A stretch of 64,000 nucleotides of DNA from Brucella sp. BE17 (lineage in GTDB: Bacteria > Pseudomonadota > Alphaproteobacteria > Rhizobiales > Rhizobiaceae), in contig NZ_CP154468.1 of assembly GCF_039545455.1 (NCBI RefSeq), positions 558,001-622,000 of the forward strand. The letters are read 5' to 3'. The notes beneath the pieces are model-generated. The model did no database searches. It had not been told where the DNA came from and saw only the letters and a program-made list of their open reading frames with translations. Below are positions 8,047 to 41,425 of the stretch, one piece after another (the first letter of the stretch is position 1; every line of letters starts with the position of its first letter). The position numbers and the translations under genes were made by a program.

Positions 8047-8085
8047 GGCTTGCTAAAGGCGATCAATCTCACAGCCGCATCGGAT

Positions 8086-8175
8086 AAAAAGAGCCGCGCC
8101 AGAATGATCTGGGCGCGGCCAAAGACTAGGGAGGAAATGCCCCTAAAGGCACTGACAGAACGATCTGTCAGGATT
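8086..8175 (-). ncRNA. Candidate minus-strand small RNA with CCTCCC motif
   Basis: On the minus strand a possible promoter (TTGACC at 8205-8200, TACTTT at 8182-8177, spacing 17) precedes a hairpin (8152-8159 with 8164-8171), then a CCTCCC motif (complement of 8129-8134), then a GC-rich terminator stem (8093-8100 with 8112-8119) followed by T5. The layout parallels two other loci in this window with a full CCTCCTCCC. It could alternatively be only a terminator facing the amidohydrolase gene. Confidence 0.5.
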
Positions 8176-11625: not shown

Positions 11626-12858
11626 ATGAACGGCAAATGCGTTATTATCGGTGCGGGCCATGCTGGTTCTCAAGCCGCAATCAGTCTGCGTCAGGAAGGT
11701 TATGCCGGAGAAATCGTCCTCATTAATGACGAACCGGATATTCCCTATCATAAGCCGCCGCTCTCCAAATCCTATCTCAAGGCGCCCCAAAATGGTGGTC
11801 TCGTGCTGCGGCCCGAAAGCACCTATCGCGACAACGCTATCGAAATGTGGTTCGGGCACCGGGTGGATGCTGTATCGCTTGCCGATAGGACGCTCACGCT
11901 GGATGATGGCCGCGTTTTTGACTGGACGCAGCTTGTCTTTGCAACAGGCGCGCACGCGCGTATTCCCGATTTGCCGGGCATCGAGCTTGACGGCGTCGTT
12001 ACCCTGCGGCGCATGGAAGAGGCGCGCCGCATTGCAGCCCTCATGCCGGACGTAAAAGATGTGGTCATCATTGGCGGTGGTTTCATCGGCCTTGAAATGG
12101 CACATAGCGCCATTGCGCTGGGCAAGAATACAACCTTGATAGAGGCAGCGCCGCGTGTTCTGGCTCGCTCTGTGGCGGCTGCCATATCGGCGCATGTCGA
12201 AACCCGCTCAAGGGGGGCTGGCATAAACCTGCTCACCGGCATCGGCGTGGCTTCGGTCGAAGGCCGCAACGGCCATGTGTCAGGTGTGAGGACACTGGAT
12301 GGTGCGCTTTATCCGGCTGATCTGGTCGTGGTCGGAACTGGTGCACTGCCAAATGCCGAACTGGCAGCAAGCGCCGGCCTTAGTGTCGATAATGGTATCG
12401 TTGTCGATGAAAACATGCGCACATCGGCAGAGCATGTTTATGCCATCGGCGATTGCGTCAGCTACGATCATTTTCACGCTGGACGTCGTGTGCGGCTGGA
12501 ATCTGTACAAAATGCCACCGATCAGGCCAAACATGCAGCACGCAGCATCGTCGGGCGTATGGCACCGTATCGAGAAGTGGCGTGGTTCTGGTCCGATCAG
12601 GGCGACATGAAGCTCCAGACTGCGGGACTGTCGTTCGACGCCGACAGGCATATCATGTCCGGCAATCCAGACGAGAATGCCTTCTCGATTTTCCATTTCG
12701 CAGGCGAGAGGCTGGTCGCGGTCGATTCTATCAATCGTCCTGCTGATCACATGATTGCCCGGCGGTTTCTTGGGGCAGGCATTAATCCAAGTGAGGCGGA
12801 TATCGCCGCTGGCGCGCTGCGGCTCAAGGCATTGTTGGCTGTGATACCAAAGCCCTGA
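11626..12858 (+). CDS. FAD-dependent ferredoxin reductase-like oxidoreductase
   Basis: This 410-residue flavoprotein moves electrons between NAD(P)H and a ferredoxin or similar partner. It has the FAD site GAGHAG near residue 8, a second nucleotide site VVIIGGGFIGLEMA near residue 146, the late YAIGDC motif near 275, and a C-terminal reductase domain with WFWSDQ. ATG 11626 is preferred, with GGAG just upstream and the nucleotide-binding strand starting directly after. No ferredoxin or P450 gene is adjacent, so its partner is unknown. Confidence 0.85.
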   Translation: MNGKCVIIGAGHAGSQAAISLRQEGYAGEIVLINDEPDIPYHKPPLSKSYLKAPQNGGLVLRPESTYRDNAIEMWFGHRVDAVSLADRTLTLDDGRVFDWTQLVFATGAHARIPDLPGIELDGVVTLRRMEEARRIAALMPDVKDVVIIGGGFIGLEMAHSAIALGKNTTLIEAAPRVLARSVAAAISAHVETRSRGAGINLLTGIGVASVEGRNGHVSGVRTLDGALYPADLVVVGTGALPNAELAASAGLSVDNGIVVDENMRTSAEHVYAIGDCVSYDHFHAGRRVRLESVQNATDQAKHAARSIVGRMAPYREVAWFWSDQGDMKLQTAGLSFDADRHIMSGNPDENAFSIFHFAGERLVAVDSINRPADHMIARRFLGAGINPSEADIAAGALRLKALLAVIPKP

Positions 12859-12870
12859 ACAGGTCGAACT

Positions 12871-12995
12871 CCAATAAAAACACCCGTTGCGGGAGGAGCA
12901 ACGGGTGTTTGAAAGAAAGACCGGACTTGGGAGGAGGATATCCGATCTTTAATCGTCAGGCGGAATGGGAGGAGGAGAACCGGCCCGACGATAAC
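12871..12995 (-). ncRNA. Array of three CCTCCTCCC hairpins downstream of DUF1127 gene
   Basis: On the minus strand three successive hairpins expose CCTCCTCCC (complements of 12967-12975 and 12929-12937) or CTCCTCCC (12891-12898). The last is a 13-bp perfect stem (12878-12890 with 12898-12910) followed by T5, making it the terminator. The middle stem pairs 12916-12925 with 12941-12950. They lie directly downstream of a DUF1127 gene. This matches the alphaproteobacterial cuckoo/CcsR small RNAs, which are stress induced and co-transcribed with DUF1127 genes in Rhodobacter. Confidence 0.8.
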
Positions 12996-13067
12996 TTTGA
13001 AACTGAAGGAGCGCACATCATGAAAAATGCGATCCTTAAAAGAAGGCTCAAGCCTTTATAGGCTGTC

Positions 13068-13214
13068 TTAACGAACAGCTGCCTTACGAGCGATGGACGG
13101 AATTTCCGCAGGCAGGATGCCGAGGTCATTCAGTTCACGCGAGCTCAAACGGCTCAGTTCGTTGACAGTGTTGCGGTAGCGGCGCCAGTTGTTGTACGAG
13201 CGGAACAGGTTCAT
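13068..13214 (-). CDS. DUF1127 small protein
   Basis: A 48-residue basic protein (MNLFRSYNNWRRYRNTVNEL... LNDLGILPAEI...) with the DUF1127 core LSSRELNDLGI. Proteins of this family are very short, Arg-rich, and in several alphaproteobacteria affect RNA turnover or carbon and phosphate metabolism. The gene is upstream of the three-hairpin small-RNA array on the same strand, with only about 70 bases between, so one transcript probably carries both. The RpoH-type promoter at 13258-13286 fits stress control. Confidence 0.9.
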   Translation of the reverse strand: MNLFRSYNNWRRYRNTVNELSRLSSRELNDLGILPAEIPSIARKAAVR

Positions 13215-13257
13215 TTTTCTCACCTAGCCAAAATCAAATCTCTGTGTTGCAAACGAC

Positions 13258-13286
13258 ATATAGGCCCTGTCGTTGAAAACTTGCAG
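13258..13286 (-). promoter_or_regulatory. RpoH-like promoter for DUF1127 and small RNAs
   Basis: On the minus strand CTGCAA (13286-13281) and CTATAT (13263-13258) are 17 bases apart, a partial match to CTTGAA-N17-CYATAT. The transcript would start about 40 bases before the DUF1127 start codon. Confidence 0.45.
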
Positions 13287-13528
13287 AGCCAGATTTGCAT
13301 AGCTGCCGTGCAATTAAGCTCGGCGATTGCACGTATTTTACGCAGTACGGCCATTTTAAAATCACAATCGTCCTTAAGGTAGACGGATCGCCCAATTTTG
13401 AGCCGAATATTTTGTCGCAAAAACCCGTTAATTTGTCGGTTGAAGGCAATAATTCGGGATGACTCCTTGCCTGCTTTCCGTTAAGTGACGTTATGTCGAT
13501 CGTTAGAGCATCAATGCTTTTACGTTGT
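13287..13528. other. Divergent intergenic region between DUF1127 and gcv
   Basis: No gene is visible. A weak plus-strand promoter candidate for the gcv transcript is TTGCCT at 13467-13472 with TTATGT at 13491-13496 (spacing 18), about 35 bases before the glycine riboswitch. Confidence 0.4.
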
Positions 13529-13706
13529 CTGTCTGCGGGAGAGCGCCAAAAGGCCGCCGAAGGGGAAATCGCCCGAAATCTCTCAGGTACAAGGAACCGC
13601 AGACAGGGAAGGCAACTCTGGAAAGTCGGGGGAAACCCCGCGCCGAAGGTGTAAGTATGGCGTGATCATCGCCATGCGAGTCTCTCAGGCCTGAGACAGA
13701 GGGGCA
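13529..13706 (+). promoter_or_regulatory. Tandem glycine riboswitch
   Basis: Two glycine aptamers lie back to back. The first (about 13529-13605) is closed by GTCTGCGG/CCGCAGAC and contains GGGAGAG...CTCTCAGGTACA. The second (about 13606-13706) contains AACTCTGGAAAG, GCGCCGAAGG and CTCTCAGGC..GACAGAGGGG. Glycine binding normally turns on the downstream cleavage system. The aptamers stand about 50 bases before gcvT. Confidence 0.93.
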
Positions 13707-13755
13707 CGAAGCAGCCGCATTTCGCGGCAGGCATACGTGCGACTCTGGAGTTGTT

Positions 13756-14859
13756 ATGGGCGATAGCACCAATCTTAAAAGCCTGCCTTTGCAGGACCTG
13801 CATCAACTAGCCAAGGCCCGTTTCGGCGGCTTTGCTGGCTGGAACATGCCAATTACCTATCCGTTGGGCGTGATGAAGGAGCATCTTCATACGCGTGAGC
13901 ATGTAGGGTTGTTTGATATTTCCCACATGAAGCTGATCGAGGTTTCGGGCCCCGAAGCAGCCGAGCTTCTGGCGCAGACCTGTCCGTTCGATCCAAGCAT
14001 TTTGAAAATCGGTCATTCCAAATATACGTTTTTTCTCAATGAGAGCGGCGGCGTACTCGACGATCTGATCGTTACACGTCTTGGCGATGAACGTTTTATG
14101 GTCGTTGCCAATGCAGGAAACGCCGATGCCGATATCGAGCATCTTCAGGAAGCGGCGGAAGGAAAAGACGTCAAAATCGATCCGCTCGACCGGGTGTTTC
14201 TGGCAATACAGGGCCCAAAAGCAGAAAGTGTGATTGCGGATGCCGGGCTTGCTGGTGGCGACCTCACCTTCATGACCGGCTTTGAGCCGAAGGCCAACTG
14301 GTTCATGACCCGTTCGGGCTATACAGGCGAAGACGGTTTTGAGATCGGTCTGCCTGTTGATGAAGCGCGTGAATTGGCAACAAAACTTCTTTCCGATGAG
14401 CGTGTCGAATGGATCGGCCTTGCCGCACGCGACAGCCTGCGCCTTGAGGCTGGCCTTTGCCTGCACGGACAGGATATTACACCGGAAACCGATCCTGTTT
14501 CGGCGGGTCTTATGTGGGCGATTGCAAAGCCTGTGCGCGAAAAGGACGCTTTTTCCGGTGCGAAGGCCGTACTCTCGGCGCTTGAAAAAGGCGCAAGCGC
14601 CAAGCGCGTCGGTCTTAAACCTGAAGGTCGCCAGCCGGTGCGCGCAGGTGCTGATCTTTTTGACGAAAATGGCCGTCAGGTCGGTACCGTCACATCGGGC
14701 GGCTTTGGTCCGTCCGCTGGTTTCCCGGTTGCCATGGGCTATGTCGAGGTCGCTCTCGCCACCCCTGGTACACGTGTTTTTGCGGATGTTCGCGGCAACA
14801 AGGTGCCTGTCGACGTCCACACACTTCCATTTACACCGCATCGCTATCGCAAAGGATAA
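13756..14859 (+). CDS. gcvT: Aminomethyltransferase, glycine cleavage T-protein
   Basis: This 367-residue enzyme transfers the methylene group from aminomethyl-lipoyl-H-protein to tetrahydrofolate and releases ammonia. Recognised features are the N-terminal [13 protein letters not shown] segment, [13 protein letters not shown], the folate-binding [14 protein letters not shown] near residue 193, and [18 protein letters not shown] near 225-240. It heads the gcvTHP operon, with gcvH 5 bases downstream. ATG 13756 is preceded by CTGGAG. Length is normal for the family. Confidence 0.95.
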
Positions 14860-18107: not shown

Positions 18108-18224
18108 AGGCAAAAAAAGAGCCGGACTAAAAAGTCCGGCCAAGTTATGAAGGTGCCATAAAGGCAAACCTCCAGAGGGGAACACTTGCCGGCGCAATGG
18201 GAGGAGGCGCAACGGCAAGTGACT
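18108..18224 (-). ncRNA. Minus-strand small RNA with CCTCCTCCC loop
   Basis: On the minus strand a 9-bp stem (18213-18221 with 18183-18191) presents CCTCCTCCC (complement of 18199-18207) in its loop. A second short stem region follows, then a terminator hairpin (18133-18140 with 18121-18128, loop of four) ending in TCTTTTTTT. An RpoH-type promoter lies immediately upstream. No coding sequence is associated. It is of the same family type as the array at 12871-12995. Confidence 0.75.
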
Positions 18225-40722: not shown

Positions 40723-40737
40723 ACAACCGCTCATTTA

Positions 40738-40872
40738 CTCTCTTTCATCCGGACTATACCGTCGGCTCCGGCATCGCACCGGATCTGCTGACCCTGAAAG
40801 ATTTCAGGCGCTCGCGGGCTCAGAGAAGGTTCTCCATACCGCCGGTGGGGAATTGCACCCCGCCCCGAGAAC
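40738..40872 (-). promoter_or_regulatory. FMN riboswitch (RFN element)
   Basis: The minus strand shows the conserved RFN order: GGGGCGGGGTG..AATTCCCCACCGG, CGGTATGGAGAACCTTCTCTGAGCC, GCGAGCGCC, GGTCAGCAGATCCGGTG, and CCGACGGTATAGTCCGGATGAAAGAG (written in pieces). It stands about 80 bases before ribH and would repress it when FMN is high. Confidence 0.95.
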
Positions 40873-41425
40873 AAGCCTGTGCAGGATTGCACGGGCAGAT
40901 CGGAAAATACGCGTTCGCATTCATTCTGTCTATATATTGACGAAAATTTTTCTGCTCGCAAACGGTACGTTTACTGAGTTTTCATGCTTTCAGTCACAAG
41001 CTTTTGAGAACATTTTTACATAAGAGATATTTTTCTAATCCATTATGAAAAAAGCATAATTTCCACTTTAATTTATCTCGCAGGTTTTTCCGAATTAAAT
41101 TTCCCGCTGTTTATTGTGGAAGGCGTATTGACACTCATCTGGAATTTTTGCCTATCTAAGGGCAGGCACTGTGTCTGGCGCGTAATGCACTTTCAAAAGA
41201 CAACGTTGTCAATTATGGGTTGGATGACGTAAAGGCTGGTGGAGGACAGCGCGGAGATTGCTCTAGCAGGCGGGATTATATGGCAGAAATGGCTACTCCG
41301 GTCTGGTTACAGTAGCTGAGACGGGCATGAGCCGGAGGCGCGTAGCAGCCGGTGCCGGTTGGGGGCCACGGGGCGCCGAACGAAAACGGCAGAACAGAGT
41401 TCATTTGTTTCTACGGGAGGTAGAT
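40873..41425. promoter_or_regulatory. Divergent control region before the sugar ABC operon
   Basis: No gene is visible. The left part carries the ribH promoter (minus) and is AT-rich. For the plus strand, TTGACA (41129-41134) and TATCTA (41153-41158) are a good promoter with 18-base spacing. A perfect 12-base palindrome GACAACGTTGTC at 41199-41210 resembles a LacI-family operator downstream of that promoter. A leader of about 200 bases follows before the binding-protein gene. Confidence 0.55.

What the first reader, a model, noticed from the sequence alone, without database searches (positions are those of the whole stretch)
12871..13214. DUF1127 gene followed by three CCUCCUCCC hairpins in one transcript
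The minus strand carries a 48-residue DUF1127 gene, then three hairpins each showing CCTCCTCCC or CTCCTCCC in its loop, the last being a 13-bp terminator stem. Known cuckoo/CcsR small RNAs of alphaproteobacteria have this loop motif and are co-transcribed with DUF1127 genes. The motif is complementary to a ribosome-binding site, so the RNAs could block translation or anti-SD sites. A three-in-one array here appears undescribed for this genus as far as I know.
Basis: partly seen in the sequence, partly recalled or inferred. Interest (0 to 1): 0.75.

Follow-up and report, generated by a model that had tools for sequence, protein, structure and literature searches.

The report
Regulatory RNA inside small-protein messenger
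A short gene for a small arginine-rich protein is followed, probably in the same transcript, by an already known three-hairpin regulatory RNA that can cover ribosome-binding sites of other messages; the probable on-switch of both lies in front of the protein gene.

Summary
In detail: a 48-aa DUF1127 gene (13068-13214, minus strand) is followed by three hairpins with CCTCCTCCC, CCTCCTCCC and CTCCTCCC in their loops, the last a 13-bp terminator stem. It is not undescribed: 12875-12996 matches Rfam RF02344 (ar14, the NfeR1 family; 83.9 bits, cut-off 58.8), defined in print by three anti-Shine-Dalgarno hairpins and stated to occur in Brucellaceae. DUF1127 next to such RNAs (CcaF1-CcsR, 'CIN1', cuckoo) is also known. 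What the tools add is the promoter's place: a VtlR/LsrB-type box with a -10 at fixed spacing lies upstream of DUF1127, not between it and the RNA. Among 65 ar14 hits in 22 family genomes, 24 of 26 DUF1127-linked ones have this signature, 23 of them upstream of DUF1127. So the ar14 RNA is most likely the 3' part of a VtlR-activated DUF1127 mRNA. Published VtlR targets of this kind are treated as small proteins in Brucella; the passages I could read do not mention ar14 there, though key papers were not readable. Protein and RNA roles could be confounded. No expression data were available; processing, targets and DUF1127-RNA contact are inferred.

The parts
13296..13311 (-). VtlR/LsrB-type box GCACGGCAGCTATGCA
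   Evidence: Fits the published consensus GCAT-N3-TG-N3-T read on the other strand (PMC7486931, passages). Only match of GCANNNCWGCYATGCA in the window (0.01 expected); GCANNNCAGCYATGCA occurs 4 times in the 3.9-Mb genome, 0 in the backward control.
13258..13263 (-). -10 element CTATAT, 46 nt from the core of the box; transcription start inferred near 13251
   Evidence: In 54 of the 59 boxed loci among 80 DUF1127 relatives a TATAT-type -10 lies at offset 46. The simple sigma-70 scan does not report it (0 promoter-like sites in 12300-13800).
13068..13214 (-). 48-aa arginine-rich DUF1127 protein gene (stop codon included)
   Evidence: Pfam PF06568 55.2 bits; 80 relatives kept of 147 found, the closest at 85-88% identity.
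12997..13067 (-). spacer with two further hairpins lacking the loop motif and a CAGTTTC linker just before ar14 (candidate processing site)
   Evidence: MFE fold of the inferred transcript; a [CA]AGTT linker lies wholly within the 40 nt upstream of the first ar14 hairpin region in 19 of 28 syntenic relatives (24 of 28 if it may run 4 nt into that region). Pattern chosen after seeing the sequences, no control.
12875..12996 (-). ar14 (NfeR1-family) small RNA
   Evidence: Rfam RF02344, 83.9 bits, gathering 58.8, E 1.2e-13.
12952..12992 (-). hairpin 1, CCTCCTCCC at 12967-12975
   Evidence: 5 of its 9 consensus pairs show double-sided changes
12916..12950 (-). hairpin 2, CCTCCTCCC at 12929-12937
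   Evidence: 1 of its 8 consensus pairs shows a double-sided change
12878..12910 (-). hairpin 3, CTCCTCCC at 12891-12898; 13-bp terminator stem followed by T-rich tail
   Evidence: 8 of its 12 consensus pairs show double-sided changes

Best explanation
The locus is one transcription unit of about 380 nt: a VtlR/LsrB-activated promoter, a 48-aa DUF1127 protein, and an ar14 (NfeR1-family) small RNA that forms the 3' part and terminator. The RNA is probably released by ribonuclease cleavage in the spacer (inferred). It then represses several mRNAs by pairing one of its three redundant CCUCCUCCC loops with their Shine-Dalgarno region (shown by others for NfeR1 in Sinorhizobium, inferred here), mainly in nutrient uptake and metabolism. 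VtlR would thus make a small protein and a broad translational repressor from one message. Shown here: gene, hairpins, family membership, conserved gene order, conserved promoter signature and its place. Inferred: one transcript, cleavage, targets, VtlR binding at this very site.
For: Rfam ar14 match; fold and covariation. Gene order: in 22 genomes that I chose out of 61, 27 of 77 ar14 hits have DUF1127 within 300 nt upstream on the same strand; 25 of 46 DUF1127 hits of 50 bits or more have ar14 within 300 nt downstream, against 1 of 39 under 40 bits. In 15 of those 27 the gap from DUF1127 domain end to ar14 is 38 nt or less (counted by hand), leaving little room for a promoter between them. 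Promoter signature over the 99% shuffle threshold in 24 of 26 linked ar14 (23 upstream of DUF1127, 1 between) and 11 of 39 free ones, where it often sits closer to the RNA. In the own genome the exact box occurs 4 times, twice in front of the two DUF1127-ar14 units; the contig-1 AbcR has a consensus box and the contig-2 AbcR has none in 400 nt upstream, as published for VtlR control of AbcR2 (chromosome I) but not AbcR1 (chromosome II) (PMC5461406, passages). VtlR activates three small DUF1127 genes in B. abortus and B. melitensis (PMC12595884, passages) and directly activates atu1667 (PMC7486931, passages); LsrB activates NfeR1 (PMC10746234, passages).
Against: No RNA data. The promoter matrix was trained on 44 distinct Brucella-group sequences, and at least 2 of the 24 linked positives (L142, L151) come from a genome in the training set; tandem copies share promoters, so the 24 are not all independent. 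The one 'between' case (L148, -13.7) is only just over threshold (-14.1). Coupling is not obligatory: three Bartonella MAG loci and one Tokpelaia MAG locus keep boxed DUF1127 with at most one loop motif, two Agrobacterium-type loci (L117, L118) show neither box nor array by these patterns, and L119 has DUF1127 with a terminator-like hairpin and a separate box-bearing promoter right before ar14 (by eye). Of 80 DUF1127 relatives 40 lack at least one of the two: 21 have no box in the orientation used, 26 have fewer than three loop motifs by the strict pattern. That this gene is the BAB2_0512 orthologue is my inference from context, not a direct comparison.
Confidence: 0.78

Rival explanations
1. 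The ar14 RNA here is transcribed on its own from a promoter in the spacer or inside DUF1127, as NfeR1 is in Sinorhizobium, and merely neighbours DUF1127.
For: 11 of 39 free ar14 copies have the promoter signature upstream; L119 shows such a promoter between DUF1127 and ar14; the window spacer is 71 nt long.
Against: The best signature for this copy lies upstream of DUF1127 (L162, 67.9, at -319 from ar14), and so it does in 23 of the 24 signature-bearing linked copies. The simple sigma-70 scan finds no site in the spacer, but it also misses the proposed promoter, so it decides nothing.
Confidence: 0.13
2. The hairpins are only a 3'-protecting and terminator structure of the DUF1127 mRNA, with no trans activity.
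For: Third hairpin looks like a good intrinsic terminator; two further hairpins precede the array.
Against: The motif in loops 1 and 2 is nearly invariant (the third looser) while stems change with compensation; trans silencing through these loops was shown for NfeR1 by others (PMC10746234, passages).
Confidence: 0.05
3. The RNA acts as a general mimic of the 16S anti-SD that sequesters many Shine-Dalgarno sequences, not a selective repressor.
For: The loop sequence contains the anti-SD core; three copies per molecule.
Against: Only 10 places with GGGAGGAG at SD distance from an ATG in the genome, against 3 in the backward control, so long complementarity is rare; published NfeR1 work reports specific targets.
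Confidence: 0.04

Closest known systems
ar14 / NfeR1 small RNAs (Rfam RF02344)
   Same: Covariance-model match, three hairpins, loop motif CCUCCUCCC, terminator as third hairpin, LsrB/VtlR-type box with a -10 at fixed spacing in the unit.
   Different: NfeR1 has its own promoter and start site (PMC10746234, passages); here the promoter lies upstream of an intervening DUF1127 gene, so the RNA would come from an mRNA 3' end.
CcaF1-CcsR1-4 operon of Rhodobacter sphaeroides (cuckoo RNAs, 'CIN1 locus')
   Same: DUF1127 gene followed by RNAs in one unit ending in a terminator; in Rhodobacter RNase E and CcaF1 act in maturation (PMC10253847, passages).
   Different: CcsR is a set of four RNAs under an RpoHI/RpoHII promoter; here one three-hairpin RNA under a VtlR/LsrB-type box.
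VtlR-activated small proteins BAB1_0914, BAB2_0512, BAB2_0574 of Brucella and Atu1667 of Agrobacterium
   Same: Short DUF1127 genes under VtlR; two DUF1127-ar14 units with the box exist in this genome.
   Different: Published in Brucella as small proteins; the authors on Atu1667 leave open whether it works as protein or RNA (PMC7486931, passages). ar14 is not mentioned in the passages seen.
AbcR1/AbcR2 (ar15, Rfam RF02345)
   Same: Alphaproteobacterial RNAs with anti-SD motifs; one copy lies in this window at 18114-18220.
   Different: A separate Rfam family with two different aSD motifs, Hfq-bound in S. meliloti (PMC8844928, passages).

Membership tests
ar14 / NfeR1 (RF02344) | Covariance-model score above the curated gathering cut-off | tested here: met
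   83.9 bits against 58.8, full model 1-123
ar14 / NfeR1 (RF02344) | Three hairpins with the anti-SD motif unpaired in each loop, variable stems | tested here: met
   third loop has CTCCTCCC, one base shorter, of which the first C closes the stem in the MFE fold
ar14 / NfeR1 (RF02344) | LsrB-type promoter directly upstream of the RNA (feature of NfeR1, not of the whole family) | tested here: not met
   signature present, but upstream of DUF1127, 319 nt from the RNA (L162)
ar14 / NfeR1 (RF02344) | Hfq-independent trans-silencing of mRNAs by the loops | not testable with these tools
   published for S. meliloti NfeR1
cuckoo / CcsR with CcaF1 (CIN1) | Short DUF1127 gene directly upstream on the same strand | tested here: met
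cuckoo / CcsR with CcaF1 (CIN1) | Co-transcription and RNase E maturation helped by the DUF1127 protein | not testable with these tools
   only an AGTT-type linker before ar14, wholly upstream in 19 of 28 syntenic loci
cuckoo / CcsR with CcaF1 (CIN1) | RpoHI/RpoHII promoter | tested here: inconclusive
   -10 is CCTATAT as in the RpoH1 consensus quoted in PMC8844928, -35 matches 4 of 6; in 60 sequences mean 3.4 of 6 against 1.5 at random places, register chosen after the fact
VtlR/LsrB regulon | VtlR/LsrB binding box in the promoter | tested here: met
   sequence match only
VtlR/LsrB regulon | VtlR-dependent expression of this gene | not testable with these tools
   published for small DUF1127 genes of B. 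abortus and B. melitensis

The most novel reading that the evidence does not exclude
The VtlR/LsrB-driven DUF1127-ar14 unit is a dual-function gene in which the arginine-rich DUF1127 protein is the cognate RNA-binding partner (maturation factor or chaperone) of the Hfq-independent ar14 RNA made from the same message, so that phenotypes ascribed to small DUF1127 proteins of VtlR regulons are partly those of the embedded RNA. This would also name a candidate for the missing NfeR1 chaperone.
Probability: 0.25. Interest if true: 0.7.

Novelty: new member of a known kind. Interest (0 to 1): 0.42.

Why it matters
VtlR/LsrB is an important regulator of host interaction in Rhizobiales, and its strongest published targets in Brucella are short DUF1127 genes of unclear function. 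If the mRNAs of two of them end in an ar14 RNA, then deletion or plasmid-borne versions of the gene may remove, add or omit an RNA regulator, and the VtlR circuit in this group gains a second class of riboregulators beside AbcR. It also makes an open question testable: which protein, if any, assists the Hfq-independent NfeR1-type RNAs (stated as open in PMC10746234, passages).

Tried and rejected
Self-immunity: none of the 80 DUF1127 ribosome-binding sites has GGAGG (3 of 34 background genes do), so I asked whether they avoid their own RNA. Duplex energies do not differ from 34 annotated genes of one Pseudochrobactrum plasmid stretch (median -7.1 against -6.1, p = 0.45): rejected.

A fifth ar14 hit in the own genome (23.4 bits) coincides with the contig-1 AbcR RNA: dropped, four copies remain, two with DUF1127. 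Of the two free copies neither has the promoter signature (L154 -26.0, L159 -42.5), though L159 has a bare GCAT-N3-TG-N3-T match 53 nt before the RNA.

Target list: 10 places with GGGAGGAG-N5-10-ATG (two are one site; backward control 3). Of the 9 sites translated, 6 open frames of 294 to 501 aa: TrbI-like, cupin, tannase, periplasmic binding protein, ABC permease, FGGY kinase. Three are transport or sugar-kinase genes, which fits NfeR1 targets, but the excess over control is small and I do not lean on it.

RpoH core promoter: suggestive, register chosen afterwards, left open. Class-wide look at 40 DUF1127 loci outside the family, of 51 such hits listed: by the pattern, L206 and L204 have four or more loop motifs in 300 nt, L225 and L242 two, the rest one or none. 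A loose box pattern matched 2 of the 40 (L227, L230), neither with an array.

The 51-aa ORF behind the third intergenic box (C2:216426) has no Pfam match, so I do not call it DUF1127. The fourth box (C2:1384587) lies inside a 715-aa frame and is taken as chance.

Literature absence: nothing linking VtlR-activated DUF1127 mRNAs to ar14 was found in the listings or in the passages opened. The papers most likely to mention it could not be read: Reinkensmeier and Giegerich 2015, Budnick 2018, del Val 2012 and Grutzner 2021 were not held; Robledo 2017 and Sheehan 2015 were not tried. Of the 15 papers opened I saw an outline plus passages (PMC3927594) or passages only; two (PMC9751625, PMC12772402) returned no passage for my terms.

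Full report
What is there. On the minus strand, 13214 to 12868, lie in this order a 48-aa DUF1127 gene, a 71-nt spacer and three stem-loops. The loops carry CCTCCTCCC, CCTCCTCCC and CTCCTCCC at 38-nt spacing; the last stem has 13 pairs and a T-rich tail. The fold is far below shuffles (-51.0 against -28.2 kcal/mol, 0 of 200). In the 64-kb window CTCCTCCC occurs four times, three of them here; the bare count is not rare (6 of 100 shuffles reach four), the regular spacing in three loops is.

What it is. cmscan of the window gives Rfam RF02344, ar14, at 12875-12996(-), 83.9 bits against a gathering score of 58.8. The review PMC7143759 (passages) defines ar14 RNAs by three hairpins with the anti-SD motif unpaired in all loops and variable stems, with members in Rhizobiaceae, Brucellaceae and Phyllobacteriaceae; PMC3927594 (passages) described a three-hairpin CCUCCUCCC RNA (SmelA075) in 2011. 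So the array as such is known. In 29 Brucella-group sequences the stems covary (99.2% of 869 cells paired; 14 of 30 pairs with double-sided changes, shuffle mean 4.6; slid controls 39-52% paired), while the motif in loops 1 and 2 is nearly invariant and that in loop 3 looser.

Which organism. The window is C2:558001-622000 of a 3.89-Mb two-contig genome. Its genus mate G016 has contigs of 324305 and 369619 bases, the lengths of two Brucella daejeonensis contigs, so the genus in the GTDB sense is Brucella, which includes former Ochrobactrum (recalled). The species is not established.

Gene order in relatives. A scan for relatives of the DUF1127 protein found 147, of which the best 80 were kept. 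By a strict pattern 54 of 80 have three or more loop motifs within 330 nt downstream and 68 of 80 two or more. Independently, in 22 genomes of the family (chosen by me from the 61, where 60 of 61 have an ar14 match), 27 of 77 ar14 hits have a DUF1127 domain within 300 nt upstream on the same strand; 25 of 46 DUF1127 hits of at least 50 bits have ar14 within 300 nt downstream, against 1 of 39 hits under 40 bits. In the window's genome there are four ar14 copies, two of them behind DUF1127.

Where the promoter is. Upstream of DUF1127 lies GCACGGCAGCTATGCA (13296-13311) and a CTATAT at 13258-13263. The box fits the VtlR consensus GCAT-N3-TG-N3-T (read on the other strand) given in PMC7486931 (passages). 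Of the 80 DUF1127 relatives 59 have such a box within 200 nt upstream (64 if the other orientation counts too), and in 54 of these 59 the -10 lies at one fixed offset. A matrix built on 44 distinct sequences was then run on 900 nt upstream of each of the 65 ar14 hits over the gathering score. The threshold was the 99% quantile of 1300 shuffles. It was reached in 24 of 26 DUF1127-linked and 11 of 39 free copies; among the 24 it lay upstream of DUF1127 in 23. In free copies it often sits close to the RNA (for example L130 at -119, L124 at -117), as published for NfeR1, whose LsrB site lies at -72 to -57 (PMC10746234, passages). At least two of the 24 come from a genome in the training set and tandem copies share promoters, so the number of independent cases is smaller. 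The generic sigma-70 scan reports no site anywhere in 12300-13800, including the proposed promoter.

Genome-wide specificity. GCANNNCAGCYATGCA occurs four times in 3.9 Mb (backward control 0): before both DUF1127-ar14 units, before a 51-aa ORF without Pfam match, and inside a 715-aa frame. The AbcR RNA on contig 1 has a box in the other orientation (GCATAGCTGCATT, 62 nt upstream), the AbcR RNA on contig 2, which lies in this window, has none in 400 nt. This mirrors B. abortus, where VtlR controls abcR2 on chromosome I and not abcR1 on chromosome II (PMC5461406, passages). In B. melitensis three small DUF1127 genes fall about 50-, 100- and 17-fold without VtlR (PMC12595884, passages). The gene here is probably one of these (BAB2_0512-like, beside gcvT); that assignment is mine, from context, and was not tested.

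How it most likely works. VtlR binds the box and activates one message of about 380 nt. The message is translated into DUF1127 and its 3' part is the ar14 RNA. A single-stranded AGTT-type linker in front of ar14 (wholly upstream in 19 of 28 syntenic loci) is a candidate cut site. The freed RNA pairs its loops with ribosome-binding sites; for NfeR1 such silencing was shown for two transporter mRNAs and ntrB (PMC10746234, passages). Every step after the promoter is inferred for this genus.

Against the reading. No transcript data exist here. L119 has DUF1127, then a terminator-like hairpin, then a separate box-bearing promoter right before ar14 (read by eye), so coupling is one arrangement among others. 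Bartonella and Tokpelaia MAG loci keep the box and DUF1127 but have at most one loop motif, and two Agrobacterium-type loci (L117, L118) show neither by these patterns. Of 80 DUF1127 relatives 40 have both box and three strict motifs, 40 lack at least one. The -35/-10 core resembles the RpoH1 consensus quoted in PMC8844928 (passages) more than the NfeR1 sigma-70 consensus, so sigma-H input is not excluded.

Comparison with known systems. It works like, and by score is a member of, ar14. In gene order it is like the CcaF1-CcsR operon of Rhodobacter, in which a DUF1127 protein binds RNA and helps mature the downstream RNAs (PMC10253847, passages); [quoted passage not shown] DUF1127 function is disputed: RNA binding in Rhodobacter, protein contact with PhoR in Agrobacterium (PMC12501420, passages).

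Verdict. The hairpin array and its link with DUF1127 are a new member of a known kind. The useful addition is that the promoter signature of VtlR/LsrB sits upstream of the protein gene, which makes the RNA a probable and, in what I could read, unremarked product of VtlR-activated small-protein genes. Moderate interest.

Noticed in passing
18114-18220 (-): ar15/AbcR-type RNA (RF02345, 60.5 bits) behind the gcvTHP region; it holds the fourth CTCCTCCC of the window and has no VtlR-type box in 400 nt upstream, unlike the copy on contig 1.
   Followed up: partly
13526-13609 (+): Glycine riboswitch (RF00504, 58.6 bits) before gcvT, divergent from the DUF1127 promoter.
   Followed up: no
8079-8157 (-): suhB/mmgR RNA (RF00519, 46.7 bits), so three trans-RNA families lie within about 10 kb.
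   Followed up: no
40733-40876 (-): FMN riboswitch (RF00050, 120.8 bits).
   Followed up: no
L206 (class-level relative): A DUF1127 gene of about 63 codons followed by eight CTCCTCCC motifs within 392 nt, like a CcsR array; by eye, upstream a GCAT-like box one base off the VtlR consensus with a CCTATAT about 46 nt on.
   Followed up: partly
L119 and L120: DUF1127 followed at a distance by a four-motif array; in L119 (the one read) a terminator-like hairpin and a separate box-bearing promoter lie between: an uncoupled arrangement.
   Followed up: partly
L086, L100, L101, L103: Host-associated lineages (Tokpelaia, Bartonella MAGs) keep boxed DUF1127 but show none or one loop motif downstream, as if the RNA array had eroded.
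   Followed up: no
L187 (G000:C2:216426): Perfect VtlR-type box before a 51-aa ORF with no Pfam match; possibly a further VtlR small-protein gene.
   Followed up: partly
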